Shown here in pieces: positions 1,397 to 46,374 of a DNA stretch of 64,000 nucleotides. The first letter of the stretch is position 1, and each line of letters starts with the position of its first letter. The notes beneath the pieces were generated by a model. The model ran no database searches and was not told the DNA's origin. It saw only the letters and a list, made by a program, of their open reading frames with translations. Source of the DNA: Clostridium massiliamazoniense (lineage in GTDB: Bacteria > Bacillota > Clostridia > Clostridiales > Clostridiaceae); the NCBI RefSeq assembly GCF_001403635.1, contig NZ_LN879464.1, positions 62,001 through 126,000 on the forward strand. The letters run 5' to 3'. Both the position numbers and the translations under genes were made by a program.

Positions 1397-3796
1397 ATGA
1401 TTTTTAAGGATTATGATAATAGAACAATAAAGTTATTAGATAAACAAGCAAATAAAATTATCGAGTTAAATAAAAGTCTTGAAAAACTTTCAGATGAAGA
1501 ACTCTCAAATAAGACATTAGAGTTTAAAGAAAGACTTAGTAAAGGGGAAACATTAGATAATCTATTGGAAGATGCTTTTGCGGTATGTAGAGAAGCTACC
1601 TATAGAGTTTTAGGAAAAAAACAATATAAAGTTCAATTAATGGGTGGAATAGCTTTACATCAAGGAAGAGTTGTAGAAATGAAAACTGGTGAAGGTAAAA
1701 CATTAACAGAGTTATGTCCTGCTTATTTAAATGCTCTATCAGGAGAAGGTGTTCATGTAATTACTGTTAATGATTATCTAGCTAAAAGAGATAAAGAAGA
1801 AATGGAACCTCTATTCCAATTCCTTAATTTAAGCACAGGTCTTGTTATTGATGGGATAGAAAATAAAAAAGAAGAATATTATAAAGATATTACTTATAGC
1901 ACTAATACTGAACTAGGATTTGATTATTTAAGAGATAATTTAGTTTATCGTTCAGAAGATAAAATGCAAAGGAAATTAAACTATGTAATCATAGATGAAG
2001 TAGATTCTGTACTTATAGATGATGCTAGAACTCCTTTAATAATGGCAGGTGCTGGGGATGAACCTAGTAAGTTGTATTATCTTGTTTCAAATATAGTATC
2101 TAAATTAAAAGAAGAAGATTATGAAAAGCAAGAAAAAGATAATTTTATATTCTTATCAGATAGTGGAATTGAAAAGATTGAAAAGATTTTAGGTATAGAT
2201 AATTTAGCAGAAATTAAATATTCATTATTAAATCATATAATTTCTCAAAGTCTTAGGGCCTATTACTTAATGGAAAAAGATAAAGATTATATAGTTTCAG
2301 ATGGAGAAATAATATTAGTAGATACCAATACAGGTAGAATTGCAGATGGTAGAAGATTTTCAGATGGACTTCATCAATGCTTAGAAGCTAAAGAGAGATT
2401 AAAGGTAAATGCAGAAAATAAAACTATTGCCAGCATAACATATCAAAATTTCTTTAGATTGTATAATAAAATTTCTGGAATGAGTGGTACAGTTAAAACT
2501 GAGGAGCTTGAATTTAGAGAAATTTATAATTTAGATGTTGTAGTAATACCAACTAATAAAACTATAAAAAGAATAGATAAAGAAGATAAAATTTTCTTAG
2601 ATAATGATTCAAAATTAAATGCTGTTATAGAGGATATAATAGAGACACATAAAACTCAAAGACCTGTATTAGTAGGTACTCCGTCTATTGATAAATCTGA
2701 GGAATTATCAGCATTATTAATAAAAAGAGGAATTCAACATAGATTATTAAATGCAAAAACTAAAAAAGATGAAGCTGATATAATTAGCCAAGCTGGTAAT
2801 AAAGGTGCTATAACTATAGCTACTAACATAGCTGGAAGAGGTACAGATATAAAAATCACAGATGAAGTTGATAATTTAGGTGGATTAAAGGTAATAGGAA
2901 CTGAAAGAACTGAAAGTAGAAGAATAGATAATCAGCTTATAGGGCGTTCTGGTAGACAAGGTAATAATGGTGAGTCACAGTTTTATTTAAGTTGTGATGA
3001 TAAGCTGCTTAATATATATGGAGAAGGTAAATTAAAGGCTAAACTTGAAAAAATGGGATTTGAAAATGGACAAGAAATTAAAAATAAAGTAGTTTCAAAG
3101 CAAGTTGATAAAGCTCAAAATGTTATTAATGCTATAAACTTTGAATCAAGAAAAGATACTATTAAATATGATGAAGTAGTAAACTCTCATAGAGAAATTA
3201 TCTATAAAGAAAGAGATATTGTAATAAGTGAAAAAAATATAGCTATACATATATCAAATATAATATTGGATAGCACATTCCATATGGTAGCCGAAACTTT
3301 CAATGAAGCAACAAATTCTAATCAAGATATAACAAAGAAAAATATATTAGGTTTATCATTAGAATATGTTGATGAAGAGGAAAGAGACAAGTTCTTTGAA
3401 ATTTTAATTAAAAAATTACCTAGCATATATCATTATGATTTTAGCTCTGCCATTTGGAGTGAATTGAAAAAGATTGATTATTTATCTGAAATAGTAGATT
3501 TTATAACTCATAAATTAATAGAATATGTTAATAATTCTATGAATAAATTGAATTTCTTAACTTATGAAACAATGAGAGGATTACTAATAGAATCAGTTGA
3601 TACATCTTGGATTAATCATTTAAATGAAATGGAAGTTTTAAAGAAGGTAGTTAAGGATCAGTCTTATAACCAAAAGAAACCTATTGATGTTTACACATTA
3701 GAAGCAGGTGCTAAGTGTGATGAACTAATTAGAAATATTAGAGATACATTTATAGAGAAAATGTTCCATATAATTAATCTTAATTTAGAAGCTTAA
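1397..3796 (+). CDS. secA: Plasmid-borne SecA-type preprotein translocase ATPase (799 aa)
   Basis: SecA drives ATP-dependent export of proteins through SecYEG at the membrane. The DEAD motor is clear: Walker A MKTGEGKT at residues 95-102, Walker B VIIDEVDSVLID near 200, the NBD2 motifs ATNIAGRGTDI and QLIGRSGRQG, and a scaffold/wing region ending VDTSWINHLNEM. At 799 aa it is a little shorter than a housekeeping SecA and has no cysteine-rich SEC-C tail. This fits an accessory SecA2-like protein, or a minimal SecA. The start has the RBS GAGGG. The next small gene follows at once and is probably co-transcribed. A SecA on a plasmid is unusual. Its substrates may be the plasmid's own surface or conjugation proteins, which is inference. 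Confidence 0.92.
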   Translation: MIFKDYDNRTIKLLDKQANKIIELNKSLEKLSDEELSNKTLEFKERLSKGETLDNLLEDAFAVCREATYRVLGKKQYKVQLMGGIALHQGRVVEMKTGEGKTLTELCPAYLNALSGEGVHVITVNDYLAKRDKEEMEPLFQFLNLSTGLVIDGIENKKEEYYKDITYSTNTELGFDYLRDNLVYRSEDKMQRKLNYVIIDEVDSVLIDDARTPLIMAGAGDEPSKLYYLVSNIVSKLKEEDYEKQEKDNFIFLSDSGIEKIEKILGIDNLAEIKYSLLNHIISQSLRAYYLMEKDKDYIVSDGEIILVDTNTGRIADGRRFSDGLHQCLEAKERLKVNAENKTIASITYQNFFRLYNKISGMSGTVKTEELEFREIYNLDVVVIPTNKTIKRIDKEDKIFLDNDSKLNAVIEDIIETHKTQRPVLVGTPSIDKSEELSALLIKRGIQHRLLNAKTKKDEADIISQAGNKGAITIATNIAGRGTDIKITDEVDNLGGLKVIGTERTESRRIDNQLIGRSGRQGNNGESQFYLSCDDKLLNIYGEGKLKAKLEKMGFENGQEIKNKVVSKQVDKAQNVINAINFESRKDTIKYDEVVNSHREIIYKERDIVISEKNIAIHISNIILDSTFHMVAETFNEATNSNQDITKKNILGLSLEYVDEEERDKFFEILIKKLPSIYHYDFSSAIWSELKKIDYLSEIVDFITHKLIEYVNNSMNKLNFLTYETMRGLLIESVDTSWINHLNEMEVLKKVVKDQSYNQKKPIDVYTLEAGAKCDELIRNIRDTFIEKMFHIINLNLEA

Positions 3797-5377: not shown

Positions 5378-5384
5378 ATTTTTA

Positions 5385-5561
5385 TTAACAAATTGTTTAC
5401 AAATTTCAACTTCAAAATTTACCTGCAAATAAACATATTTAAGGTATATAGGAAATTTTATTTTATTCAATTGTATTGAAGTATTAAAAAATAAATTTAA
5501 ATTAGCAATAGCTAATGGAGGAAAAAATAAATAGCTAAGTATAGCTCATGGAGGAAATAAA
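5385..5561 (+). promoter_or_regulatory. Conserved ~180-nt leader, copy 1 of 3
   Basis: This non-coding block recurs at 10330-10506 and 14531-14712, each time ending at the start codon of the first gene of an operon. Shared landmarks, in order, are TTTACA (5396-5401, 166 nt before the ATG), CATATTTAAGGTATA, a TTCAAT/ATTGAA stem, a TTAGCA-TAGCTAA stem, an AGCT-TAGCT stem and an AGGAGG-type RBS. In this copy GGAGGAAA appears twice. It probably combines a promoter with a structured 5' UTR. Confidence 0.7.
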
Positions 5562-7867: not shown

Positions 7868-9013
7868 CTATATATCTGATTTAGATATTTCTTCATTCAT
7901 CTTATTTTCATAATCTAAATACTTATTTTTAAACACAGCAAAAAAGTATTTAAATGAATTTCCTTTAGAACCTATTAGTCCTTCTCCTTTTTTTCTATAA
8001 GTTTCATCTAAACTTTCTACTAAAATACTATTGAAATATTCAGCAGAAAAGTCTATCATATTAGTTAAACAATAATTTAAAAATTCTAATAAGTATTTAT
8101 CTTCTATTAGTGATTCAGGAAGATTAACCCACTTATTGATTTTTGCAACTTCAGTTCTCTCTACATCTGAAGTTGTTTTTTTATTTTCTAAAATTTCCTC
8201 TTCATTATGCAAATTACTTTCTATATTTTCTTTTAATATTTCAGATGCTTCAGATACTTCAAAATTAACACCCTCAATAACTTTATCATCAATTAAATTC
8301 TTTTTCTTATTTTTAAAGTAAACCTTTGGCTCATGATCAAGTACGATAAATTTAATTTTACTTACTTTTCTGCCTTCCTTAATTTCTTTAAAATCAACTT
8401 CCATGTTTCCATGTTGCTGAATTTCCTTTACAGCTTGATTAATAACTCTTTGCTTAAAGTTTTTATATTGAGGATATTTGTCCATTGATGCACATATAAA
8501 TCTTAATTGCTCTATTCTAAATTCTTTCTCAATAACTTCTCCTGTTTTGCTCCATAACCTTAATAATTCATAAATCCTTTGCGCATAAAAACTAGAAAAC
8601 TTACTTATAATAGCTAAATTTAAAGGAGCATATACAGAGTATTTGACTATATGTTCATAAATTCTTTCTAAGAATATTAATTTAAATTCATTTTGAGTGA
8701 TATTATGTTCTATTGCTGATACTAGAGAATAATCACATTCAATGGTATCACTATCATCAACATGTTCAAAAATAAGGCTTGTCCCTTTCAATGCTTCAAG
8801 CATTTTCTTTACTGATTCAACCTTCTTTTCATTGTTATTATTTATTAAATTTTGAAGTTCTGATAATTTTAATGTGCAGCTATAAATTCCATTCTTCTCT
8901 TTTTGAGCTGAAAATAATAAATGATAAAACACTCTATTTTCTACAGCTGTAAGTTCATAAGAAGTATGAACTAATTGTTTGCTTTGCATTAAAACTTTTA
9001 CTTTGTCTGTCAT
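7868..9013 (-). CDS. repB: Rep_3/RepB-type plasmid replication initiator (381 aa)
   Basis: Initiators of this family bind iterons at the origin through two winged helices and recruit the host replisome. The N-terminus has the family pattern KQLVHTSYELTAVENRVFYHLL. The second domain contains ISKFSSFYAQRIYELLRLW followed by FRIEQLRFICASMDKYPQYKNFKQRVI, the classic Rep_3 second winged helix. The C-terminal ~140 residues are an acidic linker and an unrecognised tail, making the protein longer than many RepB proteins. Seven iterons lie directly upstream (9116-9356), as expected for origin and autoregulation. It is one of two initiators in the window. Confidence 0.9.
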   Translation of the reverse strand: MTDKVKVLMQSKQLVHTSYELTAVENRVFYHLLFSAQKEKNGIYSCTLKLSELQNLINNNNEKKVESVKKMLEALKGTSLIFEHVDDSDTIECDYSLVSAIEHNITQNEFKLIFLERIYEHIVKYSVYAPLNLAIISKFSSFYAQRIYELLRLWSKTGEVIEKEFRIEQLRFICASMDKYPQYKNFKQRVINQAVKEIQQHGNMEVDFKEIKEGRKVSKIKFIVLDHEPKVYFKNKKKNLIDDKVIEGVNFEVSEASEILKENIESNLHNEEEILENKKTTSDVERTEVAKINKWVNLPESLIEDKYLLEFLNYCLTNMIDFSAEYFNSILVESLDETYRKKGEGLIGSKGNSFKYFFAVFKNKYLDYENKMNEEISKSDI

Positions 9014-9115: not shown

Positions 9116-9356
9116 ATTTTAAATCCGTTACCTTTCTTTCTTAATCCGTTACCTTTAGAAAATCTTAATTTGTTACCTTTGAGCCTTAAAAATATTATTT
9201 CTAAAATAGAAATTTAAATAAAAGCTAGATATAATGCCATTTATACTAATTTTCTTAATCTGTTACCTTTTAATTTTTTAATTAATTCCCCACATTTCTT
9301 AATCCGTTACCTTTCTTTCTTAATCTGTTACCTTTTCTTCTTAATCCGTTACCTTA
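9116..9356. repeat. Seven iterons, putative replication origin 1
   Basis: The core TTAATCCGTTACCTTT or close variants occur at about 9118-9135, 9138-9156, 9163-9180, 9251-9270, 9297-9314, 9318-9335 and 9337-9356. They lie upstream of the minus-strand rep gene. Variants change CCGTT to TTGTT or CTGTT. The spacing is ~20-25 bp inside clusters, with one ~70-bp gap between the third and fourth. This is the standard layout of an iteron-controlled origin. Confidence 0.85.
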
Positions 9357-10035
9357 ACACCCTCTAAAGCTAGTTATTTCAATGGCTCAAAAATCTCTAA
9401 ATACTATTAAAGACTATATAAATACTATTTATATACTAAAGAAGAAGAAAGAGAGACTTAACTTTTCTTTCTCCTCCTCCTATTTTAAAAAAATAAATTT
9501 ATTTTAGATTTATTTATTTTGTTATTCCTAGTAATTTAAATTGCTCTAACTTTAATTAATATAATTGGACCAATAAATCTTTTATCACAGCAAATAGAGA
9601 AAAAGGGTACACACACTAATATAAGCGTAATGTTTTTTGAGCACCTTATATTTGAGTATTTTTTACGTACATCTTCATAAAGAACTTTTTTTTACACACC
9701 TAAAAGTTATTTTATAGATTAATTTATATCATTATTCCTAACAATTAAGTTTATTACCCATTATTTCCTCAAAATAAGGTTATTATAGGAGTTTTCATTA
9801 TTGTTTGGTATAAATTATTATGTAAAGCGAAAAACCTCTTAAAAACGATTTTAAACGTTAAATATAAAATTCAGAAAATAAATAAAAACCATACCTCCGA
9901 AAAGTAGGGTATGGATATTGTGCAATGTGGTAAAGAGACTAAATAGTAAATAGGGGTATATAATAATATTAATTTAAACAACAATCTATCTTTTACTAGG
10001 TTATATAATTATTATATTGGGAGAGGTGTTTCAGA
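9357..10035. other. Gene-free AT-rich region next to origin 1
   Basis: I see no credible gene. The region holds long AT stretches (possible unwinding element) and an inverted repeat CCATACC/GGGTATGG at 9889-9914. TATAAT-like and RBS-like (GGGAGAGGTG) sequences precede the Rpn remnant at 10036. Confidence 0.5.
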
Positions 10036-10254
10036 TTGCATATTAAATCTTTATATGATCCACTGGTTGAAAAAATAGGAGAAGAACGTGGAGAGAAACG
10101 TGGCGAAAAGCGTGGCGAAAAAATAGGAGAAAAGAAGGCATTAATAAAAGTAGCTATAAATTTATTAGATATATTGGATGATGAAACAATAGCTTTAAAA
10201 ACAGGATTAAAAATTGAGGAAGTAAAGAAACTAAGAAAAGAGAATTTAAATTAA
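10036..10254 (+). pseudogene. C-terminal remnant of Rpn-family (PD-(D/E)XK) nuclease/transposase
   Basis: A 72-aa frame from TTG encodes a Glu-Arg-Gly-rich repeat (GEERGEKRGEKRGEKIGEK) and then VAINLLDILDDETIALKTGLKIEEVKKLR. That tail is characteristic of the C-terminus of Rpn/"PD-(D/E)XK nuclease family transposase" proteins of ~300 aa. The catalytic N-terminal domain is missing, so this is a truncated remnant. The DNA coding the repeat is itself a tandem 12-bp repeat. It has an RBS and a terminator (10275-10318), so a short peptide may still be made. Confidence 0.65.
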
Positions 10255-10318: not shown

Positions 10319-10329
10319 TTTATTATTTA

Positions 10330-10506
10330 TTGTTCACAAATTATTTACATATTAGAGGTTCAAAAAAATAATGTAAATTAGCATATTTAAGGTATATAGG
10401 AAAATTTATTTTATTCAATATTTATTGAAGATTAAAAAAAAGTTTAATTAGCACTAGCTAATGGAGAAAAAAATAAATGGCTTTATAAGCTCACAGGAGG
10501 AAAAAA
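10330..10506 (+). promoter_or_regulatory. Conserved ~180-nt leader, copy 2 of 3
   Basis: It aligns throughout with copies 1 and 3: TTCACAAATTATTTACA (TTTACA at 10344-10349, 163 nt before the ATG), GAGGTTCAAAAA, AATGTAAATTAGCATATTT, AAGGTATATAGGAAAA, the TTCAAT/ATTGAA stem, TTAGCACTAGCTAA, a GGCTTTATAAGCTC hairpin and AGGAGG. It drives the operon starting at 10507. Confidence 0.7.
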
Positions 10507-11058
10507 ATGAATAAAAAGTACAACAAGAAATTTACAAAGTCTATGATTGATAGTATTGATTTTGCTATCAAAAGTTTTAAGGAAATTTTCAGTAGTAAGC
10601 TATCTAAGATTTGCTCTTTAATAGTTGCTATTGTAATCTTCATTTTTGGTGATTTTTCAGATATTGTTTTCATGCTTTTAGGTATGTTTACAGCTTATGT
10701 AATGTATAAGCACTATATCAATAAATTCATCAATAATTATCAATTTTCTTCAGAGAAAAAGGAAGAGGTAGTTATAGAAAATGAAGAAGTAATTGAGGAA
10801 GTATTCAACTTCGATTTAATTAACAGTAATGTTACTAGAGAAGATGATACTTATAAAATATTACTTAAAGATATTGTTAGCTTAACAGGGCAAAACATTG
10901 AAGAAATTAATATAATTCTCAATTATGAAAAAGTATATGCAACAATCAATGCTTTTGATGAAAAACAAAATTTTATTTTCAGAACTGTAAAAGCATTAGA
11001 TAAAGGTGCAACGCTGGATACAAATTTTCTAATAGATTTAATTAATGAAAATTGTTAA
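10507..11058 (+). CDS. Membrane protein with cytoplasmic tail (183 aa, unknown)
   Basis: Residues ~38-70 form one or two adjacent transmembrane helices (SLIVAIVIFIFGDFSDIVF and MLLGMFTAYVMYKHY). A basic N-terminus and an acidic cytoplasmic domain of ~110 residues flank them. No family recognised. It is the first gene behind leader copy 2 and of an operon that runs to the ThiF gene. Its membrane location may anchor the downstream system, but that is a guess. Confidence 0.65.
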   Translation: MNKKYNKKFTKSMIDSIDFAIKSFKEIFSSKLSKICSLIVAIVIFIFGDFSDIVFMLLGMFTAYVMYKHYINKFINNYQFSSEKKEEVVIENEEVIEEVFNFDLINSNVTREDDTYKILLKDIVSLTGQNIEEINIILNYEKVYATINAFDEKQNFIFRTVKALDKGATLDTNFLIDLINENC

Positions 11059-11138
11059 TTAGACCTTATAGACCTAGAAATAAAAATATGGATTTAAAGA
11101 AATAAATAAACAAAGAATGTTAGGAGTAAATAAATAAA

Positions 11139-11366
11139 ATGAATATGCAAAATAAAGTTAAAGAATTAAGAATTAAAATAAAAAAATCTTTTGTTAACAC
11201 AGGTAAAGAAGTAACTGTTGTTAATCATGGAAGAACATATAAAATAAAAGCTGAAAAAATCAATGGCTTATGGATGGGAGTTTTATATAACGAGCAAATT
11301 AATGGATTAGCTGTTAATAGAAGCGTTATTGAAAAAATGATAGAAACAGATGAAAGTATCATTTAA
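11139..11366 (+). CDS. Small unknown protein (75 aa)
   Basis: AGGAG precedes the start. A basic N-terminal helix is followed by a beta-rich part (NHGRTYKIKAEKINGLWMGVLYNEQ). No family recognised. It lies between the membrane protein and an acidic protein that starts 13 bp after it, so it is part of the same operon. Confidence 0.6.
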   Translation: MNMQNKVKELRIKIKKSFVNTGKEVTVVNHGRTYKIKAEKINGLWMGVLYNEQINGLAVNRSVIEKMIETDESII

Positions 11367-11379
11367 GTGAGGTATCCCA

Positions 11380-11670
11380 ATGATAGAGATTGATTTTGAA
11401 TATATTGAAAAAAGAAAAATAAATAAAGATGAATTATTAGCTAGAGAATTACTTAATGTTTCAGCAACAATTCGTGATGAATTTGATAGTGCAGCAGCTT
11501 TTAAAGTTTTAAATAAAGTTGAGAAAAAACATTTTGAACTAGCTTTTAAGATATTAAGTGAAAATGACAACCACCAATTAAAAGATATGGCAATGTTTGA
11601 AACTTTAATATCTAATATTCTATCAACTCCGATTATAGAAGATGAGGAGGATGATGAAATTTATGTATAA
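11380..11670 (+). CDS. Small acidic helical protein (96 aa)
   Basis: TGAGGT lies six bases before the ATG. The protein is mainly helical and acidic, ending EDEEDDEIYV. No family recognised. Its end overlaps the start of the next gene, and the GAGGAGG inside its last codons is that gene's RBS, so the two are translationally coupled. Confidence 0.6.
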   Translation: MIEIDFEYIEKRKINKDELLARELLNVSATIRDEFDSAAAFKVLNKVEKKHFELAFKILSENDNHQLKDMAMFETLISNILSTPIIEDEEDDEIYV

Positions 11671-12610
11671 GAATTTAAATCTTTCAGAAATGTATACTTT
11701 AAAAAGAAATTTATATAGATTAGAAAATCTATATAATCTAAAAAACTTTTTTAAAGAACATGATTTAAACAACTTATTAGAAGAGCATAATGAAGAAATT
11801 CTCTTTGATGCTTTGAATGAATTTGAATGTCATGATATTAAGGAACTTAATTGCATTTTAAGTAATGAAGATATTCATAAAGTAATCAAATTTATAAATG
11901 ATAGTTATAAAGAAGCGTTTAAATCAAATGATACAAAGAAATTTATAAGTTATTTAATTAGTAACATACTTTTCTTTAATTCAATAAATCAATATGATAA
12001 TAGTTGCTTTGATTTTAACTCTCTATTTGATTCACTTTGTGAAACATTTAAAATCCCAGAAAACTTAAAGGAATCACTAATACACTTAACACAAGGGTTC
12101 TATTATCAGCAAAAAGCTCATAATGATCCAGAAGAGGATTGGGTAGATGATTATTTTTATCACTGTCCATTCGGTTTAGATTTTATTACTGTTGTGGAAA
12201 GATTAGCAGCTCATTTTAATGTAACTTGCGTTGGTATTAGCAAAGAGGAACTTGGAACTGAAGACTTTTTCTCTGATGGTTATGACAAATATTTTCAAAG
12301 TGAGTTTGAAGATATTAAAGATAGTCTTACTTTTACAGAGGAAGGTTATGTTGAAGAAGGTTCTTATTTTGATGCATTCCAGTCAGATGATTATGTCTTA
12401 TATATAGAAAAAAATATAAGTGAGTTAACTCTGGATTTTCTTAAAAACATTGCGCCTAATTATAGTCCTTATCATCAATATATAGAATTTTTCCCTTTTA
12501 AACAAAGTGATAATACGGTGAAAATTTCCTTTAATGATGGAGCTATATTCCCAGGAGTATCTATAATGTTTTTAGTTTTACTTATATTAATGATGGTGGA
12601 GGAAATTTGA
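11654..12610 (+). CDS. Unknown operon protein (~318 aa) with hydrophobic C-terminus
   Basis: Several ATGs cluster after GAGGAGG (11642, 11651, 11654, 11663). I use 11654, and 11663 is equally possible. The first ~150 residues are helical and acidic. The middle has conserved-looking aromatic and cysteine residues (WVDDYFYHCPFGLDF). The last 25 residues are very hydrophobic (FPGVSIMFLVLLILMMVEEI), suggesting a tail anchor. No family recognised. Its stop overlaps the E2-like gene, which suggests a functional partnership. Confidence 0.6.
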   Translation: MKFMYKNLNLSEMYTLKRNLYRLENLYNLKNFFKEHDLNNLLEEHNEEILFDALNEFECHDIKELNCILSNEDIHKVIKFINDSYKEAFKSNDTKKFISYLISNILFFNSINQYDNSCFDFNSLFDSLCETFKIPENLKESLIHLTQGFYYQQKAHNDPEEDWVDDYFYHCPFGLDFITVVERLAAHFNVTCVGISKEELGTEDFFSDGYDKYFQSEFEDIKDSLTFTEEGYVEEGSYFDAFQSDDYVLYIEKNISELTLDFLKNIAPNYSPYHQYIEFFPFKQSDNTVKISFNDGAIFPGVSIMFLVLLILMMVEEI

Positions 12611-12612
12611 AT

Positions 12613-13306
12613 ATGATAATAGATATAAAATTAGATACAACTAGTAACACTGCATTAGTTACTAAAAATGTTAGTGGTGTGAAAAAAGAATTTACAGTAG
12701 CTACTTCTGACTTGATTGATAGTTTTAAATTGTCTAAAAGTAATACAGATGATAAAAACTTTAAGCCTATTATTGGTCTTATTCAACAAAAAAAGAATGG
12801 TTATGAGTTAATTCAAACTATACAAATAGCAAAACAAGGATTCATATATATTTTTAAGGTAGATAAAAAAAGAGTACCTTTTTATATATATGATAAATGT
12901 TATGGGGTATGTGGTATGCCTAGCTTACTAGTAGCTGTTAAAGTTGTTAATAAGAAATTTAACGGTATGTATGTACAAGCTATAAAGGAAAATACCATTA
13001 TAGAAAATTCTAGCCCTTTATATATATCCTTTTTCTAACACATCTTGTAATACTGGAAGTGTTTGCTTTGGATTAAATTCTTTCGAGCAAAAACTAAATA
13101 GTATTGAAGATATAGTTAGGCTAATTGATTATTTTTATGAAATACCTAATACATCAGAAATGTTTAGAGTATTGAATAATAAGCCTAAATTACAATTTAG
13201 GGAGTTAGCATCCACTTTGAAAGATGAAGATTTTAATGATGACTTTTTAGTAGAGAATTCAAGTGTTCCTAATTATGAAATGTGGTTATCTCAAATTTTA
13301 AGATAA
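12613..13306 (+). pseudogene. PRTRC-B/E2-like protein, frameshifted in a TA run
   Basis: The reading frame from ATG 12613 stops at 13038. The downstream sequence stays open in another frame to 13306. Joining the frames at the TATATATA run near 13020 gives ...SSPLYIYPFSNTSCNTGSVCFG..., followed by ~85 more residues. The LYxxPFxN...GxVCxG pattern is the hallmark of PRTRC system protein B, an E2-like fold in ubiquitin-like conjugation cassettes. One TA unit too few explains the shift. The gene is inactivated here, or is phase-variable, or has a sequencing error. Without repair the 142-aa product lacks the PFxN-GxVCxG segment. Confidence 0.6.
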
Positions 13307-13359
13307 AAAGTATAGAAATAAATAAATAAAATTTAAGAGTAAGAATGGAGAATGAAATC

Positions 13360-13746
13360 ATGGATTTATTAACAATGTTCAATATAGAAAAGAAAGAAGA
13401 AACAAAAGTAGAAACAAAGGTAGAAAAGAAAAAAGAAAACAATAGTAAAAAAACTGAAACAAAGACTAAGAAAGTTACTAAAAAATTAGATAACTTAAAT
13501 GCTAATAAGGAAAAAGAATTAAAAAATTTCACTAAAGTTGAATTAAAGGCTTTTGGAGGAAGAATCAAGATGATTGAGGGTGAAGAACTTGAAAATATCA
13601 AACTTGATACTCTTCAAGAGGAATTAGTTGAATTAGGATATCACGAATTCGCAGCTAACGTTTTATGGTTAATAGTACCTAATAAAACTAAAACTGAAGC
13701 TGTATTAGTGGCATCATGTGGCGAAAAGTTCCATGCAAAAGGCTAA
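13360..13746 (+). CDS. Putative ubiquitin-like (PRTRC-C-like) protein with Lys/Glu-rich N-terminus
   Basis: The start at 13360 is preferred because GGAG lies nine bases upstream; 13345 is an alternative. Residues 1-60 are a charged, low-complexity tail. Residues ~60-128 form a compact alpha/beta domain (VELKAFGGRIKMIEG, LQEELVELGYHEFAANV, TEAVLVASCGEKFHAKG). Its length, strand order and C-terminal KG resemble the small PRTRC system protein C, a beta-grasp ubiquitin-like fold. It lies between E2-like and E1-like genes. The family call rests on context plus weak similarity. Confidence 0.5.
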   Translation: MDLLTMFNIEKKEETKVETKVEKKKENNSKKTETKTKKVTKKLDNLNANKEKELKNFTKVELKAFGGRIKMIEGEELENIKLDTLQEELVELGYHEFAANVLWLIVPNKTKTEAVLVASCGEKFHAKG

Positions 13747-13769
13747 ATTTTATATGGAGGTGGAATAAG

Positions 13770-14471
13770 ATGGAGTATTCAATTTTTTTAATAGGCACAG
13801 GAGCTACTGGAAGTAACTTAATTGGTAATTTGGCTCAATATGCTATTGGTGAGAAAAAAATAAAAAATATAATTTTAATAGATGGTGATTTGGTTGAGAG
13901 TAAGAATTATCGAAATCAAAAATTCACAGCAAAAGATTTAGGGAAAAATAAAGCTAAAGTATTAGCTAATAGATACTCTAAATTAGATATTGATGTAAGC
14001 TATGTTGATTCTTATATAAAAGATAAAGAAAGCTTAATTGATATTATAAAAAACTATAACACAGCACCTATTATAATAAGTTGCATAGATAATAATAATG
14101 GCAGGATAATCTTAGACCAAGTGTTTAGAAGTGATGAAATTCCTAATTTAGTATACATTGATACTGGAAATGGAGATGAAACATCAAGATTAGGTCAAAC
14201 AATTATTGGTGCAAAACAGGATTGTAAGATAATAGCTCCCCCGGTTGGAGATTATTTCCCTCAAATATTTGAAGGTGATAAAGATGTTGAAACTATAAAA
14301 GATTATAGTTGTTCAGCACAAATAGTTGAAAAACCTCAATGCCTTACAAGCAATGTTTTAAGTGCTACTACAGTCTTTTTAATACTTGTTAATTTAATAA
14401 GTTATAACAAAGTTGAAGGTAGATACTTTAAATTCAATGCTGAACATATTGGTATTGAGAAAGTTAGATAA
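13770..14471 (+). CDS. ThiF/E1-like adenylyltransferase, PRTRC type (233 aa)
   Basis: E1/ThiF enzymes activate the C-terminus of a ubiquitin-like protein by adenylation. The start at 13770 follows GGAGGTGG. The Rossmann ATP site is clear: FLIGTGATGSNLI at residues ~6-18, then LIDGDLVESKNYRNQKF, the D...NxxRQ-type Mg/ATP signature. A CSAQI...QCLTSN region near residues 178-192 could hold the acceptor cysteine. The length and single domain match the ThiF-family protein of PRTRC cassettes. It is the last gene of the leader-2 operon and is followed by a strong terminator. Confidence 0.85.
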   Translation: MEYSIFLIGTGATGSNLIGNLAQYAIGEKKIKNIILIDGDLVESKNYRNQKFTAKDLGKNKAKVLANRYSKLDIDVSYVDSYIKDKESLIDIIKNYNTAPIIISCIDNNNGRIILDQVFRSDEIPNLVYIDTGNGDETSRLGQTIIGAKQDCKIIAPPVGDYFPQIFEGDKDVETIKDYSCSAQIVEKPQCLTSNVLSATTVFLILVNLISYNKVEGRYFKFNAEHIGIEKVR

Positions 14472-14488: not shown

Positions 14489-14520
14489 ATAAGCAACCTT
14501 TAAGGGTTGCTTATTTTTTT
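14489..14520 (+). terminator. Terminator after ThiF gene
   Basis: ATAAGCAACC and GGGTTGCTTAT pair around TTTAA, followed by TTTTTT. Confidence 0.85.
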
Positions 14521-14530
14521 ACAAATATTA

Positions 14531-14712
14531 AAGTTCACAAATTATTTACAATTTTGAGGTTCAAAAAATTAATGTAAATTAGCATATTTAAGGTATAAGG
14601 GAAAATTTATTTTATTCAATTTATTGAAGTATTAAAAAAACAAAATTTAATTAGCAGTAGCTAAGGAATAAAAAAATAAATGGCTGTATAGCTCTAAGGA
14701 GGAAAATTTAAT
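14531..14712 (+). promoter_or_regulatory. Conserved ~180-nt leader, copy 3 of 3
   Basis: It is closest to copy 2: TTCACAAATTATTTACA (TTTACA at 14545-14550, 168 nt before the ATG), GAGGTTCAAAAA, AATGTAAATTAGCATATTT, AAGGTATAAGGGAAAA, TTCAAT/ATTGAA, TTAGCAGTAGCTAA, a GGCTGTATAGCTC hairpin and AAGGAGG. It lies in front of the zinc-ribbon/clamp/primase operon. Confidence 0.7.
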
Positions 14713-15669
14713 ATGTTAAATGTAGATCGCTTATTCAAAGCTGGAAGAGAAACTAAAATTTTTGAGGTTGTAGATAAACTAAGTGTTAATGATTTTTATA
14801 ATAACACTGGGTATCAAGATGTAACTTCTATTCATGAAAAAATGTCCAGAATAAAATTAGTTATAGTTGATATTTCAAAAGGTAAAGGTCCGTCAGCGTC
14901 AGTCGGTGAATTTAATCTTAAAGCGAGTGAATGGAACCAACACATGAGAACTTTACTTAATTTACAACGCTTTTTAAGTCTTTATCCAAAGAAAATTTTA
15001 TCTATTTCAAAAGCTAATCCATATAAAAAATTTGAAAATGATTTTATAGAAGTAAAACATTTAAAAATAAGTTATCAAGATGGATTAAGAGTAGGAGTAA
15101 GATGGAAGTTTGAAATAATTACTGGAAGAGCTAAAGCCATGAGTGATGGTTTTGGTTATGAAAATAAGACTTTTCAAAAAATAAATAATGTTGATTTCTT
15201 ACTTAGTCCAGAGGAATTAGAATCAATGATTACTTATATCACTAAGTATATTTCCTTATGGGAGCAATCATCATTTAATGAATTCATGCTTAATAAAAAA
15301 GAGTTTATTAAAAGATGTTGTGAAAATAACTATGATGAGAAAACAATTAAAGAATGGAATAAGAACCCTAATAGTTATAGAGATAATTCATTTAGGGGAA
15401 ATACTTCTAATTCAAATCCATCTGAAACAATTAGGAACGTAAACTCAAATGTTAAAAGGGATATGGCTACACAAAGTAGTTACTCCTCACAGGTGAGCGT
15501 TAACCTAAATCAAGCACAAGGTCAGAAGGTAGGAAACCTTCAAAAATCACAGTTGACCTGTGAATCTTGTGGCTGTGAAGTTACATTATCTATTGCCAGC
15601 ACAACTAAAAAACAGTTTGGCAAGGCTTTATGTGAGACATGTTTGGTTAAAGAAATATATAAAAAATAA
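14713..15669 (+). CDS. Putative DNA-binding protein with C-terminal zinc ribbon (318 aa)
   Basis: Residues 1-190 are an alpha/beta domain without a family I can name. Its middle (RIKLVIVDISKGKGPSASVGE, SYQDGLRVGVRWKFEIITGRA) looks like an OB-type or ssDNA-binding fold. Residues ~215-275 are a Ser/Asn/Gln-rich linker. The C-terminus has two CxxC pairs (CESCGCE...CETC), a probable zinc ribbon. It is the first gene of an operon with a sliding clamp and a primase, which supports a role in plasmid DNA replication. Function not established. Confidence 0.6.
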   Translation: MLNVDRLFKAGRETKIFEVVDKLSVNDFYNNTGYQDVTSIHEKMSRIKLVIVDISKGKGPSASVGEFNLKASEWNQHMRTLLNLQRFLSLYPKKILSISKANPYKKFENDFIEVKHLKISYQDGLRVGVRWKFEIITGRAKAMSDGFGYENKTFQKINNVDFLLSPEELESMITYITKYISLWEQSSFNEFMLNKKEFIKRCCENNYDEKTIKEWNKNPNSYRDNSFRGNTSNSNPSETIRNVNSNVKRDMATQSSYSSQVSVNLNQAQGQKVGNLQKSQLTCESCGCEVTLSIASTTKKQFGKALCETCLVKEIYKK

Positions 15670-15746: not shown

Positions 15747-16817
15747 ATGAAAATAGAAGGATTAAAGGAATTATTTTTAAAAGCAGAGAAGGTTTCAGAA
15801 TTAGTAAAGGTGTCATCAGATGAGAATATGATAAAAGTATCAGCTAATTCAGGGAATATTTATTATACTGCTGGAGTTGCAAATGAGGAAAAAGAGGTAA
15901 CAGAGTTTATTTTAGATAAAAATAGTATTAATCTTTTAAAAGCTATTGAAGTTGGAGAAGTAGCTTCAGTTACTGTTAAAGGCAACAAGATAGAGATTAA
16001 AGGAGGTTCTACTAAAGCAACATTAGTTCAATTAGAGGATACTGTTAAGGAGGTTAGCTTTGAAAGTCAAGCTATGGCTAGATTTGATATATCAAATATT
16101 AAAAAAGTTTTATATACTTGTGCTGTAAATAGCCCACATGCAATCCTTAATGGAATTTCATTCAAAACAGTTTGTGGTGATGTTGAAGTTGTAACGTGTG
16201 ATGGAATAAGAACTGCTATAACAACTATACCATTGAATCAAGTTCCTAACATGGAAATGTTAGCTGATGGTTTAGAATTCGTAATATCAAAAAATGATAT
16301 CACTAAAATTCTTTCTATAATGCAAGGTGAAATATGTCTTCTATATGATAAAGAAAAGAATGTAGCTACTTTCTTACAAGAAAACAACATGATATCTGTC
16401 AATTGTTTAACTGAGAAGTATATATCTTATAATAAAATATTAACAAATATACAAACACCAAATTATATTTTAGTTGATAAAGATGCTCTTTATAAAAACA
16501 TTAATAGATGTGCCTTAGCTGGTAATTTAAAAGTATCTTTAGATATGTCTAAAGTAGAAGTTGATGTAATATCTAAAAGTGAAACTATTGAAATTGTAGA
16601 TACAGTTAAAATAGCTGAAAGTAATTTAAATGAGAATATCAAAATAGATTTTAACCTTAAATATCTAAATGATATGATTAGCTCAATAAGAAGTGAAGTT
16701 GAAGAAGATGAAATAAGACTAGAGTTTAATTCACCTCTTCTTCCTATTAGATTTATTTCTGAGGATACTCAACACTTATTACTTCCAGTTGCTGATAAGA
16801 AAAAAATAGAAAAATAA
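15747..16817 (+). CDS. dnaN: DnaN-like DNA polymerase III beta sliding clamp (356 aa)
   Basis: The beta clamp tethers DNA polymerase to DNA. The length equals that of chromosomal DnaN (~360-370 aa), and the three-domain pattern is visible: HAILNGISFKTVCGDVEVVTCDGIR in domain 2 (read in two parts), and the C-terminal LLPIRFISEDTQHLLLPVAD, matching the usual LLPVR end. RBS AGGAG precedes the ATG. Divergence from canonical sequences is high, as expected for a plasmid or phage clamp. A hairpin at 16837-16870 separates it from the primase. It may swap for or compete with the host clamp. Confidence 0.85.
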   Translation: MKIEGLKELFLKAEKVSELVKVSSDENMIKVSANSGNIYYTAGVANEEKEVTEFILDKNSINLLKAIEVGEVASVTVKGNKIEIKGGSTKATLVQLEDTVKEVSFESQAMARFDISNIKKVLYTCAVNSPHAILNGISFKTVCGDVEVVTCDGIRTAITTIPLNQVPNMEMLADGLEFVISKNDITKILSIMQGEICLLYDKEKNVATFLQENNMISVNCLTEKYISYNKILTNIQTPNYILVDKDALYKNINRCALAGNLKVSLDMSKVEVDVISKSETIEIVDTVKIAESNLNENIKIDFNLKYLNDMISSIRSEVEEDEIRLEFNSPLLPIRFISEDTQHLLLPVADKKKIEK

Positions 16818-16870: not shown

Positions 16871-16897
16871 TAAATGGAAATATAGGAGGAAAGATTG

Positions 16898-18007
16898 ATG
16901 AATGAATATTCAAATGGAAATAACAATTATGATGATGTGAGATTAAGTATATTAACAGTTGCAGATAAATGTGGCATAGATTATGATATGAAACCTTATG
17001 CACATGGAAGATATTTAGCACACTGTCCTTTTTGTAACAGTGACAGTAAAAAGCTATCTTTAACAACTGATAATGGGAAAGGTTATAAAAATGTATATAG
17101 ATGTTATAAATGTGGCGAATCAGGCTCAGCTATAAAACTTTATGCTACTTTAAAAGGCTTAAATAACAAAGAAGCTTTTAAAGAATTAATAACAGACGGA
17201 GATATTAGTAAAAATACAAAAATAGAAAAAATAATAAAAGAGGGAAATGAAATTCCAAGTTGTTTAGAAACAGCAGATCTTGATACATTGGATAAAGTAT
17301 ATAAAGATTTTATTAAACTTTTGAAATTGGACAGGAACTCATATGAAAATCTTAAAAGTAGAGGTATTAGTGATGAATATATAAAGGCAAAAGGGTATAG
17401 AAGTATTCCTTATAGCTATCAAGAAAGATATGAAATTACTAATAAATTAATTAATATGGGACATTCATTAGAGGGGATAGCTGGTTTCTATAAGGATGAA
17501 TATAATAAGTGGACTTTTAACGGAATACAAGGATATTTAGTTCCAATAAGAGATTTAAAAGGCAGAATAAATTCATTTCAAATTATGATGAATCAAAAGG
17601 TCAAAAAATTAAGATACACTTATTTTACATCAAGCAAATATTCTACTGGAGCAAAAGCTCTTGCTGTACCTAATATTTCATCAGGTAAGAATACTGATTA
17701 TGTTTATATAACTGAAGGACCACTAAAAGGAGATATAGCTAGTTTCTTTTCTGGGGATACATTTGCTTCAGTTCCAGGAGTGAATTCTGGTATAGATGTA
17801 TTAATTGAATACTTGAAAGAAATAAATCCAATCAAAGCTATTATTTGCTATGACATGGATATGTATGAAACTCCAGAAGTTAAAAACGCTTTAATCAAAT
17901 TAATCAATAGATTAAATGATATTGGAATATATTCAGAATTAAAACTTTGGGATAAAAAATATAAAGGGATAGATGATTATTATTATTCACTTAATAATGT
18001 AAAATAA
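16898..18007 (+). CDS. DnaG-type primase with zinc finger and Toprim (369 aa)
   Basis: It makes RNA primers for plasmid DNA synthesis. The start is ATG 16898, seven bases after GGAGGA; the preceding TTG is not needed. The N-terminal zinc finger is CPFC...CYKC at residues ~35-68, with nearby AHCPFCNSD. The Toprim region is at ~250-320: YITEGPLKGDIAS, then VPGVNSG, then AIICYDMDMYE carrying the acidic metal ligands. There is no helicase domain, so it may use a host or plasmid helicase. It is the last gene of the leader-3 operon and ends at a terminator (18022-18064). Confidence 0.85.
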   Translation: MNEYSNGNNNYDDVRLSILTVADKCGIDYDMKPYAHGRYLAHCPFCNSDSKKLSLTTDNGKGYKNVYRCYKCGESGSAIKLYATLKGLNNKEAFKELITDGDISKNTKIEKIIKEGNEIPSCLETADLDTLDKVYKDFIKLLKLDRNSYENLKSRGISDEYIKAKGYRSIPYSYQERYEITNKLINMGHSLEGIAGFYKDEYNKWTFNGIQGYLVPIRDLKGRINSFQIMMNQKVKKLRYTYFTSSKYSTGAKALAVPNISSGKNTDYVYITEGPLKGDIASFFSGDTFASVPGVNSGIDVLIEYLKEINPIKAIICYDMDMYETPEVKNALIKLINRLNDIGIYSELKLWDKKYKGIDDYYYSLNNVK

Positions 18008-18119: not shown

Positions 18120-18600
18120 CAATAAAGCTAAAATAAGCAAATAAAAAAAATATAATAATTTAACTTATTAACTATTTAATTACTATATATATTTAATAAT
18201 TAAATAAATTTACTATTATACTTTTTAACTTATTAAACAAATTTACTATTATACTTTTCAGCTTTTTTAAAAATTTAGTTTTATAATTTTTATATAGTAC
18301 ATTTTTTAAAAAGTATAATTCTTATATAGATTTAACAAATTAAAAAGTTAATTACACATAATAATAACTGTATTTAATTTTTTAATTTGTTAAATAGTAA
18401 TAATATTTCATAATTATAATTATTAAAAAATAAATTAATTATTATATTTAAATTTTATATTAGTTAAATACTAAATAAATTTAATTAGTAAAAAATATAT
18501 GTTATTTAACAAATTAAATATTATTATAATTTTATTTTTTTACTATTTTGAAATTCATATAATTAATTATTGAACTTTTTAAAAAATTATGTTAATATAG
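18120..18600. repeat. AT-rich direct/inverted repeat tract, putative centromere (parC)
   Basis: About 500 bp without genes and almost pure A/T lie just upstream of parM. AAATTTACTATTATACTTTT occurs twice in tandem (near 18207 and 18238), and its inverted form AAAAAGTATAAT follows near 18309. TTTAACAAATTAA occurs near 18331 and 18505, and inverted as TTAATTTGTTAAA near 18382. In type II systems ParR binds an array of direct repeats upstream of parM, so this is the likely parC. Confidence 0.6.
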
Positions 18601-20878: not shown

Positions 20879-21463
20879 TTGGATAAAACAGAACTTATTC
20901 TAAAAGCTCAAAATAACGATAAGGAATGTTTGGAGGAATTAATCAATAGTTATGAGTGCTATATGAAAAGTCTTATAAGGTTATTTAACCTCACATATGC
21001 TCAAGAAGAGGAAATATATAATAGTGCGGTCATTGGACTTCTAACAGCATTAAAGACTTTTGATATAAGCAAAGGATTTAAGTTGCATACATATGCAACT
21101 GGGTTTATCAAAAGAGAAATAGTAAAATTTATTAAACTAGAAATACTATCATTCTCCTATAAATACAATAAGGCTCATGGAACAGAAGCTGAGATTATTT
21201 ATTTAGATAGCTTGTGTACAGAAACTGAAGTGTTTAGTGAAGTGATAGGAAGCGAAGATAAAATGTTACAAAGTGTAGAAAGTGAAATGTTTATCGAGTC
21301 AATACTCAATGAATTCCCTCGTGAGAAAGACTGGTTAAGAGAATTTTTCGTAGAAGATAAGAAGATATCTCTAATAGCTGAAGAAAAAAATGTTAGTATG
21401 TCTTATTTATATTCAAGAAAAAGAAGCTTATTACCTAGTCTAAGGAAGGAGGTGATTCTATGA
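20879..21463 (+). CDS. Sigma-70-family RNA polymerase sigma factor (194 aa)
   Basis: Region 2 is recognisable: YMKSLIRLFNLTYAQEEEIYNSAVIG, then LLTALKTFDISKGFKLHTYATGFIKREIVKFIK when read in parts. This has the core-binding and -10-recognition pattern. The C-terminal half (EFPREKDWLREFFVEDKKISLIAEEKNVSMSYLYSRKRSLLPSLR) is a region-4-like HTH. The size is close to clostridial plasmid/toxin sigma factors such as UviA, BotR and TcdR, but the exact group is not certain. The TTG start is probably coupled to the 27-aa ORF. It overlaps the first T4SS gene by four bases (ATGA), so it likely controls conjugation genes. Confidence 0.8.
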   Translation: MDKTELILKAQNNDKECLEELINSYECYMKSLIRLFNLTYAQEEEIYNSAVIGLLTALKTFDISKGFKLHTYATGFIKREIVKFIKLEILSFSYKYNKAHGTEAEIIYLDSLCTETEVFSEVIGSEDKMLQSVESEMFIESILNEFPREKDWLREFFVEDKKISLIAEEKNVSMSYLYSRKRSLLPSLRKEVIL

Positions 21464-30976: not shown

Positions 30977-31013
30977 ATAATCTTATTAAGAAAAAACTTA
31001 ATAAGATTATTTA
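30977..31013 (+). terminator. Hairpin with T-rich tail
   Basis: AATAATCTTATTAAG and CTTAATAAGATTATT are perfect 15-bp arms, followed by TAATTT. Confidence 0.65.
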
Positions 31014-31400
31014 ATTTAAGTTTATTAATTAAAAAATATATAAGTTAAAAACAATATATATTTAATTATAAAATTATTATATTAATTAAATAATTAATTC
31101 ATTAATAATTTTAGTATTTAATTTATTAACTATTTTAATATTTGATTAATATAATTAGTATATTTTTTAATTAATAAATTACATTTGATTTTTAATAAAT
31201 TAAAAATAATTTATTTTTATAAAATTATATATTTAATTAATGTACTTTTTAAAAATATAAATAACAAAATAATTTAATAATTTAATTATTAAACAAATTT
31301 AAAATTCAAATTATTAAATAATATATTATTTAAAAAATATATTAAATTACTTTTTTAAAATATTTATTTTTAAAAGAATTAACTTTTTAAAAAGGAAGGA
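31014..31400. other. Second extremely AT-rich gene-free tract
   Basis: About 390 bp contain almost only A and T, with many overlapping TTAATTAA-like palindromes and ATTTAATTAT motifs. There is no reading frame of note. It resembles the tract upstream of parM in composition but lacks its clear direct repeats. It could be an unwinding element, an oriT-flanking region or simply a promoter region for the gene at 31408. Confidence 0.4.
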
Positions 31401-46000: not shown

Positions 46001-46276
46001 GTAGTTGCTAATAAACCAGAAGAGGATTGGGAATTACTAGATGAAAGCTATAAATTTAAATTTTCAATATATAGAAATGATTTAATAGAGGTGAAGTTCA
46101 TCAAAAAGGGAACTTTTTTTGGGTATTTTGATGGTTTTGATAGATCAACTAGTGCAATTGCAATAAAAGCCCATGATTCTTCTGAAAAATCAAGAATAGG
46201 AATTAAAGTAGGAGTTGCTGAATTCAATAAATATGAAGTTGATGTTTTGGGGAATTATTATAAAATAAAGTTATAA
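43085..46276 (+). CDS. cas9: Compact Cas9 nuclease, type II (probably II-C), 1063 aa
   Basis: RNA-guided DNA endonuclease. RuvC-I is LGLDIGITSVGWSV with D13. An arginine-rich bridge helix follows (RRIARGRRRVLRRKTHRIKR, residues ~57-76). RuvC-II is INIELSREL with E501. HNH is CEIDHIIPFSRSFDNSLSNK with D581/H582, then ENRNKSNR. RuvC-III is HHALDATVVAVATR with H719 and D722. All catalytic residues are intact. Size 1063 aa is typical of II-C. GAGGAG supports ATG 43085 or, with better spacing, 43091. It lies 14 bp after the tracrRNA terminator. No cas1, cas2, csn2 or cas4 flanks it, so it cannot acquire spacers alone. Confidence 0.95.
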   Translation: MLMKDINYRLGLDIGITSVGWSVINLDKDRIEDLGVRIFSLGENPKTGESLATQRRIARGRRRVLRRKTHRIKRVRKLLIDTGVISQTELENLYNDRSVTDVWEARIKGLDEVLSNKELAKLLITFAKRRGFKSNRKSERSDKEISVLLNDINSNKQGMIETNARTIGEFIYNKVKSSEDKYAGFRNKAGEHLMSVSRDMIVEEIEFLFKTQRDLGNKLISNELEEKYLEIFNSQRPYSKFEQLEKLVGNCTFEKELKRAPKNSISAEEFILYDNVNKLSIINKGAKRKLTEDERELIIKEAFNKKEIKYSRLRKLLDIKDNERFSTLTYSTDKDINKTENTKFIAMKGYYEIKTGIEEYGGKELWNSVKDNREMLNNIAYVITLGKSDNEISEQLKLRGVPDDIIDATLDLTFTKFMNLSVYAIEKILPFMKDGLQYNEACEIAGYDFRNIYKGEKYKKLPVINIDEIINPVVNRSLAQSRKVINSIIDKYGSPIGINIELSRELAKSVKDRDKIKKKQIKNREKSQSLKEEIKTLLKKEPTSSEILKYRLWEEQKGKCAYTQNEITINNLFEDGFCEIDHIIPFSRSFDNSLSNKVLVLCSENRNKSNRIPYEYFGHDIEKWSNFEQWVVNSGLDYKKKLNLLNRKNSKEEMNIRNIQDTQYISKFIANYINNKLEFKKSDIYKSKQKVIMINGMATAYLRLRWGLMKVREEGDKHHALDATVVAVATRGLINKISRHSKAHELNWLAQQVKYIDIETGKEINIEEYKDVLKEKFPKPWDEFKEELLLRLSNNPKEELKNNNIKTYDEEFIEKSLRPIFVSRVPNRKVKGALFEETIYSKKSFKDGKYITKKNLSDLTKKDLENIYNYKTDKKLYDSIIARMEAANYDGKKAFTEEFRKPTKNGELGPVVRSIKVKAKLPFKDGFELKKANGMVAKQGLVRVDIYYKDDKYYTVPVYRYQISSGEIPKMAVVANKPEEDWELLDESYKFKFSIYRNDLIEVKFIKKGTFFGYFDGFDRSTSAIAIKAHDSSEKSRIGIKVGVAEFNKYEVDVLGNYYKIKL

Positions 46277-46364: not shown

Positions 46365-46374
46365 CATTGTTCCT

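What the first reader, a model, noticed from the sequence alone, without database searches (positions are those of the whole stretch)
10507..14471. Ubiquitin-like conjugation cassette (PRTRC-like) on a clostridial plasmid
The E1/ThiF gene is clear. The gene before it has a C-terminal domain resembling PRTRC-C (Ub-like), and the one before that carries the PFxN...GxVCxG pattern of PRTRC-B (E2-like) after frame repair. The other four genes (a membrane protein, two small proteins, a 318-aa protein with a hydrophobic tail) are unknown. PRTRC cassettes are known mainly from Proteobacteria and Bacteroidetes plasmids and their function is unresolved. A Firmicute version with a membrane protein in the same operon would be a new variant.
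Basis: partly seen in the sequence, partly recalled or inferred. Interest (0 to 1): 0.75.

Follow-up and report, generated by a model that had tools for sequence, protein, structure and literature searches.

The report
Plasmid ubiquitin-like protein-tagging cassette
A clostridial plasmid carries a small set of genes that looks like a stripped-down bacterial ubiquitin-type protein-tagging machine, and it seems to be switched on from the same kind of promoter as the plasmid's DNA-copying genes, which gives a testable clue to what these little-understood cassettes do.

Summary
The cassette is real. E1-like: ThiF. E2-like: two pieces in different frames, matching residues 7-133 and 135-226 of an unbroken E2 (Prok-E2_D) of a Clostridioides plasmid; the catalytic Cys lies after the break. 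Ubiquitin-like: 13345-13746 ends in Gly and is predicted, at low confidence, as beta-grasp. An intact E2 relative is predicted to fold like eukaryotic E2s. A terminator-like hairpin follows ThiF. "New in Firmicutes" is wrong: the 2006 description of this operon type (6d) lists Bacillus cereus and B. thuringiensis. What differs from 6d: no JAB deconjugase was found (also missing in other relatives), the modifier is a free protein already ending in Gly, and the E2 lacks the downstream His. New in what I could search: a ~165-bp leader precedes the cassette, the helicase gene and the clamp-primase genes; the Clostridioides plasmid has its own version before the same three operons. Best reading: an E1-E2-Ubl cascade expressed with, and perhaps acting on, plasmid replication. 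New variant of a known kind; targets unknown; this E2 copy may be dead.

The parts
10326..10490 (+). ~165-bp leader/promoter repeat upstream of the cassette (core TTCAAA-N17-CATATT at 10359-10387)
   Evidence: 88.8% identical over 160 nt to 14533-14690 and 81.8% over 159 nt to 5379-5536; core pattern 4 matches in window (three of them in the leader copies), 0.69 expected, 1 of 100 shuffles as many
10507..11058 (+). 183-aa membrane protein, one hydrophobic stretch (about residues 26-63) and a soluble C-terminal part; first cassette gene
   Evidence: hydropathy; same position as the 177-aa membrane gene of the Clostridioides cassette but no sequence similarity
11139..11366 (+). 75-aa protein, unknown
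   Evidence: no family match over a cut-off, no relative in fetched loci
11380..11670 (+). 96-aa small acidic-tailed protein, conserved cassette gene
   Evidence: phmmer 1.6e-5 to L001:9221-9517; hhalign 64%, 6.5e-5
11642..12610 (+). 322-aa protein with hydrophobic C-terminus, in the place of the fast-diverging helical protein of 6d operons
   Evidence: hhalign only 1.2% (0.043) to the gene in the same place of the Clostridioides cassette and 5.6% (0.0068) to its paralogue after ThiF; three control pairs with these proteins 0.1-0.3%; no tblastn match in plasmids
12607..13038 (+). E2-like gene, N-terminal piece (frame ends in a stop)
   Evidence: matches residues 7-133 of L001 E2_D, 3e-18
13004..13306 (+). 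E2-like gene, C-terminal piece in another frame, with the invariant Asn and the catalytic Cys (codon 13064-13066)
   Evidence: matches residues 135-226 of L001 E2_D, 2e-16; Asn and Cys in 54 of 54 rows
13345..13746 (+). 133-aa probable ubiquitin-like modifier ending in Lys-Gly
13716..14471 (+). ThiF/E1-like adenylyltransferase (likely start ATG 13770); candidate active Cys199 of the 251-aa frame
   Evidence: D56, D58, E61, N64, K79, D125, R130 in 53 of 53 rows, C199 in 52 of 53, one gap
14489..14514 (+). terminator-like hairpin with T run, probable end of the cassette transcript
   Evidence: 3 terminator-like sites in 8.8 kb, 1.6 expected; this one has by far the longest stem, 11 pairs
14533..14706 (+). 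second copy of the leader/promoter repeat, upstream of the 318-aa/clamp/primase genes
5379..5546 (+). third copy of the leader/promoter repeat, upstream of the UvrD-type helicase gene (5562)
14713..15669 (+). 318-aa protein with a Cys-pair (zinc-ribbon-like) tail, first gene of the replication group; not part of the cassette
   Evidence: 32% identity to pESS17301a 68308-69153; the zinc ribbon is my reading, Pfam match under cut-off
15747..16817 (+). plasmid sliding clamp (DnaN-like)
   Evidence: PHROG 947 8.9e-23; TIGR00663 1.6e-12, under its cut-off
16895..18007 (+). primase-like protein (CHC2 zinc finger, DUF3854)

Best explanation
It is a plasmid-borne ubiquitin-like conjugation cassette, a JAB-less relative of operon type 6d (PRTRC-like), expressed together with the plasmid's replication genes. 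Inferred mechanism: ThiF (E1) adenylates the C-terminal Gly of the 133-aa modifier, which is made with that Gly already exposed and so needs no processing protease; the modifier passes to a Cys of E1 (probably Cys199), then to the Cys of the E2, and from there to a lysine on a target. The 96-aa and 322-aa proteins would serve as adaptor or scaffold and the membrane protein as an anchor or target. With no JAB deconjugase in the locus the tag would be removed slowly or not at all. Because the cassette shares its leader/promoter with the helicase and the clamp-primase operons, in two plasmids and from two places, I think it acts while the plasmid replicates or establishes itself, perhaps on replication or recombination proteins. 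Shown: gene content, motifs, predicted E2 fold of an intact relative, no JAB found in the window, shared leader sequence, terminator-like hairpin. Inferred: catalysis, promoter activity, targets, adaptor roles, irreversibility. The E2 frame is broken in this copy, so it may be inactive here, or the break may be a sequencing error.
Confidence: 0.55

Rival explanations
1. Defence module: like CBASS E1-E2 (Cap2) and BilABCD, the cassette tags phage or foreign-plasmid proteins to protect host and plasmid.
For: ThiF matches PADLOC E1-E2 models (best 4.1e-9) and BilD (5.5e-4); rare and scattered (Prok-E2_D in 4 of 391 sampled genomes of the class, 2 over cut-off); Iyer et al. 2006 raise protection against invading replicons as one possibility (passage); Cas9 on the same window.
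Against: PADLOC matches cover only the shared adenylation domain; no nuclease, cyclase or JAB was recognised in the operon; it shares its leader with the plasmid's own replication operons.
Confidence: 0.2
2. Addiction or self-maintenance module: untargeted tagging harms plasmid-free cells, one of the possibilities raised by Iyer et al. 2006 for these operons in general.
For: Plasmid location; the 2006 paper's proposal (passage seen); stands at different places of one backbone.
Against: The paper's idea rests on opposed tagging and JAB de-tagging; JAB was not found here.
Confidence: 0.12
3. Decayed relic: the broken E2 means the cassette in this plasmid no longer works (can hold together with any of the other readings of the family).
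For: Frame break between the N-terminal part and the Cys where four relatives are unbroken; a helicase gene elsewhere in the window (54229-56766) also carries an in-frame stop.
Against: The other six cassette frames are open; the break lies in a low-complexity AT/T stretch, where sequencing errors are common (recalled); a second broken gene in one window fits sequence errors as well.
Confidence: 0.3
4. Not protein tagging: ThiF and a ThiS-like carrier modify a small molecule or peptide, as in thiamine, siderophore or microcin pathways.
For: The ThiF superfamily is used that way (MccB matches 2e-4).
Against: An E2-type protein with invariant Cys stands beside ThiF in 57 of 103 sources, the window and its whole clade among them; no biosynthetic partner gene was recognised in the operon.
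Confidence: 0.05

Closest known systems
Operon type 6d of Iyer, Burroughs and Aravind 2006 (Prok-E2_D, Pfam PF14460)
   Same: E1-like without rhodanese, separate E2-like with Cys, small Ubl ending in Gly, an extra fast-diverging protein, mobile elements (PMC1779556, section 14 whole and passages of Table 1)
   Different: No JAB found (the paper: always fused or adjacent); E2 lacks the conserved downstream His; Ubl gene stands between E2 and ThiF; added membrane gene; leader shared with replication operons
PRTRC system (NCBIfam; TIGR03735-TIGR03738 seen here, other numbers recalled)
   Same: ThiF best matches TIGR03736; E2 of relatives matches TIGR03737 weakly
   Different: Scores far under the curated cut-offs; no PRTRC C match; no PRTRC-type ParB found in the window
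Cassette of Clostridioides plasmid pESS17301a and C. difficile contigs (L001, L005, L006)
   Same: Same order small gene, 261/322-aa gene, E2, Ubl, ThiF; ThiF 53-54% identical; leader shared with helicase and clamp-primase operons (pESS17301a)
   Different: Different place on a shared backbone; an extra frame between E2 and Ubl (203 aa; 111 aa in L005); E2 intact
   Same: E2, free Ubl ending in Gly, ThiF, no JAB between them
   Different: Genes in front differ in annotation (L002: hypothetical and ArdC-like); a membrane gene was not looked for; leader not compared
BilABCD and CBASS type II E1-E2
   Same: Bacterial E1/E2 conjugation logic
   Different: Different E1 and E2 families and architecture; JAB-type DUB in BilABCD (PMC11354881, passages). 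Anti-phage role: for CBASS from a title and abstract start in a listing (PMC10097602), for Bil recalled

Membership tests
Operon type 6d (Iyer 2006) | Separate E1-like (ThiF) gene without rhodanese domain | tested here: met
   251-aa frame, ThiF the only match over a Pfam cut-off
Operon type 6d (Iyer 2006) | E2-like protein with conserved Cys | tested here: met
   Cys in window piece and all 53 other rows; predicted fold of an intact relative. Frame broken in the window
Operon type 6d (Iyer 2006) | Absolutely conserved His downstream of the Cys of the E2 | tested here: not met
   Aligned place: Asp 29, His 15 of 54 rows, Glu in the window
Operon type 6d (Iyer 2006) | Small protein ending in a conserved Gly | tested here: met
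   6 of 6 free versions
Operon type 6d (Iyer 2006) | That small protein has the beta-grasp fold | tested here: inconclusive
Operon type 6d (Iyer 2006) | JAB peptidase fused to or next to E1 | tested here: not met
   No match better than E 2.9 in the window, 1.4 in pESS17301a (131.4 of 136.4 kb read); the profile does find PRTRC A of Methylomonas at 8e-10
Operon type 6d (Iyer 2006) | Fast-diverging helical protein | tested here: inconclusive
   322-aa gene in the right place, hhalign 1.2% and 5.6% only; helical content not predicted
PRTRC (NCBIfam) | PRTRC_ThiF over curated cut-off | tested here: not met
   74.5 bits, cut-off 144.75
PRTRC (NCBIfam) | PRTRC_B over curated cut-off | tested here: not met
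   Neither window piece matches it; relatives L001-L003 24-34 bits, cut-off 131.45
PRTRC (NCBIfam) | PRTRC_C / Prok_Ub match of the small protein | tested here: not met
   No match for the window, L001, L002, L113, nor L006 in NCBIfam; P. fluorescens pQBR55 control matches PRTRC_C 2.9e-11 (itself just under the cut-off) and Prok_Ub 1.1e-15
PRTRC (NCBIfam) | PRTRC-type ParB gene | tested here: not met
   No phmmer match <=1e-4 to Methylomonas PRTRC ParB in the window's frames of 50 aa or more (no positive control in that set); rest of the plasmid unseen
Pfam Prok-E2_D PF14460 | Over gathering score | tested here: inconclusive
   Relative L001 39.5 bits (cut-off 25); window pieces alone none
BilABCD / CBASS E1-E2 | E1-E2 or BilD architecture | tested here: not met
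   Only the adenylation domain of those models is matched

The most novel reading that the evidence does not exclude
A SUMO-like modifier system of a plasmid replisome: a one-way (JAB-free) Ubl cascade, fired from the same promoter as the plasmid helicase, clamp and primase, that tags plasmid replication or recombination proteins (clamp, the 318-aa protein of 14713, or Rad52-type annealers in sister cassettes) to control copying or establishment.
Probability: 0.2. Interest if true: 0.85.

Novelty: new variant of a known kind. Interest (0 to 1): 0.55.

Why it matters
Cassettes of this kind occur on plasmids, viral contigs and genomes of several phyla, and in the listings and passages that I saw no tested function is given for them. 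A version stripped to E1, E2 and a ready-made modifier, with the same leader as the plasmid's replication genes in two different plasmids, narrows where to look: at plasmid replication and recombination proteins as targets. It should also be simple to reconstitute, as no processing protease should be needed.

Tried and rejected
The nearest plasmid by VirB4-type ATPase is pESS17301a, 43.8%, the only record under 1e-100.

Programmed frameshift in E2: not favoured. The relatives read (L001, L005, L006, L002) have one open frame at this place and other bases around it. Not excluded.

JAB absence as a mark of this clade alone: rejected. Of 57 E2-bearing sources 23 show no JAB: the window, L001, L002, L005, L006 and 18 others outside the clade, some cut by contig ends; pQBR55 and a Deinococcus plasmid lack it in the stretch read too.

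Homology of the free Ubl to the Ubl-like region fused ahead of JAB (13 loci read by eye: L003, L007-L013, L015, L017, L018, L024, L027, junctions such as KKKG, QSKG, KKRG, KKKGG) or to PRTRC-C: hhalign 0.0-0.3%. Shuffle scores are high only for L002 against two of three PRTRC-C proteins (z 5.0 and 4.6), and for L005 against one (z 3.3), 15 pairs tried, so I do not claim it. The idea that JAB loss left a pre-matured Ubl is an inference from position and C-terminus.

Membrane gene and 75-aa gene as conserved families: no similarity to the genes in the same places of the Clostridioides cassette. The 322-aa gene: weak only.

The 318-aa protein at 14713 as a Rad52: rejected (hhalign 0.0%, no hmmsearch match).

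Leader RNA structure: folding of three leaders is not clearly better than shuffles (z -1.21, 0.02, -1.58). Sigma-70 scan not enriched (44 found, 63.8 expected). The window-built leader profile does not hit pESS17301a below E 0.12: the link between plasmids is the short core, its spacing and the same operons. The core pattern is not enriched in L110 (1 match, 46 of 100 shuffles as many).

Prevalence: Prok-E2_D in 4 of 391 genomes of the class of the C. difficile genome G001 (2 over cut-off, G001 itself and G066); the Clostridioides-type ThiF in 3 of 398 genomes of the phylum at 1e-15, one of them G001, the sister C. difficile genome of the query.

Rows dropped: 8 of 103 sources with ThiF and JAB but no E2 match belong to neither group. 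In one search identical rows were removed (57 to 53 ThiF rows).

Literature on novelty: searches listed no title or abstract start on this JAB-less form or on a shared leader; searches returned nothing. I opened only PMC1779556 and PMC11354881. Subscription papers and preprints are mostly not held.
Full report
What is there. Seven + strand genes run from 10507 to 14471 with short gaps or overlaps, the largest gap 80 nt apart from the E2 region, followed at 14489-14514 by an 11-pair hairpin and T run. The last gene is a ThiF-type E1 (PF00899 6.8e-17). Its best NCBIfam model is PRTRC_ThiF (8e-21), well under that model's cut-off (74.5 of 144.75 bits). Its adenylation-type residues (roles recalled) D56, D58, E61, N64, K79, D125 and R130 are present in 53 of 53 distinct ThiF rows taken from 57 E2-bearing sources, and C199 in 52 of 53 with one gap.

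No deconjugase. Over 102 fetched loci plus the window, 57 sources carry an E2_D match at E<1e-4, and 34 of these also a JAB; some of the other 23 are cut by contig ends. The window has no JAB of this family in 64 kb, nor has pESS17301a in the 131.4 of 136.4 kb read. The 2006 paper states that a JAB was always fused or adjacent (section 14). In the ThiF tree the window groups with the Clostridioides rows (100/99) and then with Thermoanaerobacterium pMU3262 (100/99), all without JAB in their loci. JAB-less loci also occur outside this clade (18 of the 23), and JAB was not found in the 12.6-12.7-kb stretches around the PRTRC genes of pQBR55 and a Deinococcus plasmid, so its absence is not unique.

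Where it sits. The window's backbone is collinear with pESS17301a: helicase, 318-aa protein, clamp, primase, ParM, sigma factor and conjugation genes. There the helicase and the 318-aa gene are about 0.5 kb apart; in the window 7.5 kb lie between them, with the Rep3 initiator (7868-9013) and the cassette. On pESS17301a the cassette is at about 100-105 kb, some 30 kb from the 318-aa gene. I infer that the cassette is a unit that has moved on a shared backbone.

The shared leader. A ~165-bp sequence occurs three times in the window, 82-89% identical, just upstream of the helicase gene (5562), the cassette (10507) and the 318-aa/clamp/primase genes (14713); a profile of it finds no fourth copy. 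Both plasmids share the core TTCAAA-N17/18-CATATT, a pattern I chose after seeing the leaders: 4 in the window (0.69 expected), 5 in L107 (0.47), 6 in L001 (0.38), 6 in L111 (0.53; some are the same sites as in L001), 1 in L110 (0.57, not enriched). Distances to the start codon are 119-124 nt in the window and 51-87 nt at eight sites measured on pESS17301a. The element also precedes several genes of unknown or other role on pESS17301a, so it marks a plasmid-wide group of operons that includes the cassette and replication operons. That it is a promoter is inferred from sequence and position.

Company elsewhere. A Rad52-type gene lies near the cassette in 8 of 57 E2-bearing sources, directly after E2 in 6 of them, and in 0 of 38 sources that have ThiF but neither E2 nor JAB (8 sources with JAB and no E2 left out). 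The query came from one of these loci, which biases the count, but 2 of 5 further loci fetched by an E2 search also had it (one of the 5, L109, is the L005 place again). The window's primase has relatives in 6 of the 56 other E2 sources and in 0 of 38.

Reading. The parts fit an E1-E2-Ubl cascade that needs no processing protease. A leader shared with replication operons, in two plasmids and from two places, makes plasmid replication or establishment the likeliest setting. Targets, adaptors and irreversibility are inference. This copy may be dead or mis-sequenced at E2.

Known or new. The free-Ubl, JAB-less clostridial clade and its shared leader show in no title or abstract start that my searches listed (26 and 51 empty). 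By the tests made it should not be filed as PRTRC or as a strict 6d member; it is a divergent relative that probably works like one.

Noticed in passing
43085-46276; 46374-46475: A 1063-aa Cas9 (PADLOC Cas9 1.2e-196) followed by two copies of a 37-nt repeat, 65 nt apart: perhaps a minimal or decayed CRISPR array.
   Followed up: partly
9117-9368: Direct repeats with the recurring word CTTAATCCGTTACCTTT or near, 21 nt apart in part, beside the Rep3 initiator gene (7868-9013): probable iterons of the plasmid origin.
   Followed up: no
54229-56766: RecD-type helicase frame interrupted by an in-frame stop at 55894-55896; a second broken gene in the window besides the E2. The RecD name is my own reading, no family search.
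   Followed up: partly
60334-60407: RAGATH-18 RNA (71.7 bits) 54 nt after a TnpB-like gene (59147-60280; TnpB by my reading); possibly its guide-type RNA.
   Followed up: no
1397-3796: A 799-aa SecA homologue on what looks like a plasmid (PF07517 2.2e-114).
   Followed up: no
20879-21463: Plasmid-coded sigma-70-like factor (Sigma70_r2 and HTH_16) with a relative on pESS17301a (8.6e-13); candidate driver of the shared leader.
   Followed up: no
18176-18517 and 30998-31390: Diverged direct and inverted repeats, about 68% alike, upstream of the ParM-like gene and again after the conjugation genes; possibly partition or transfer sites.
   Followed up: no
L003, L007, L009, L012-L015, L017, L112, L114: Rad52-type gene near E2_D in Bacillota cassettes, often directly after it.
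   Followed up: partly
10036-10254: Short frame with tandem GEKRGEK-type repeats upstream of the cassette; resembles the C-terminal end of an Rpn-type nuclease (recalled, no search).
   Followed up: no
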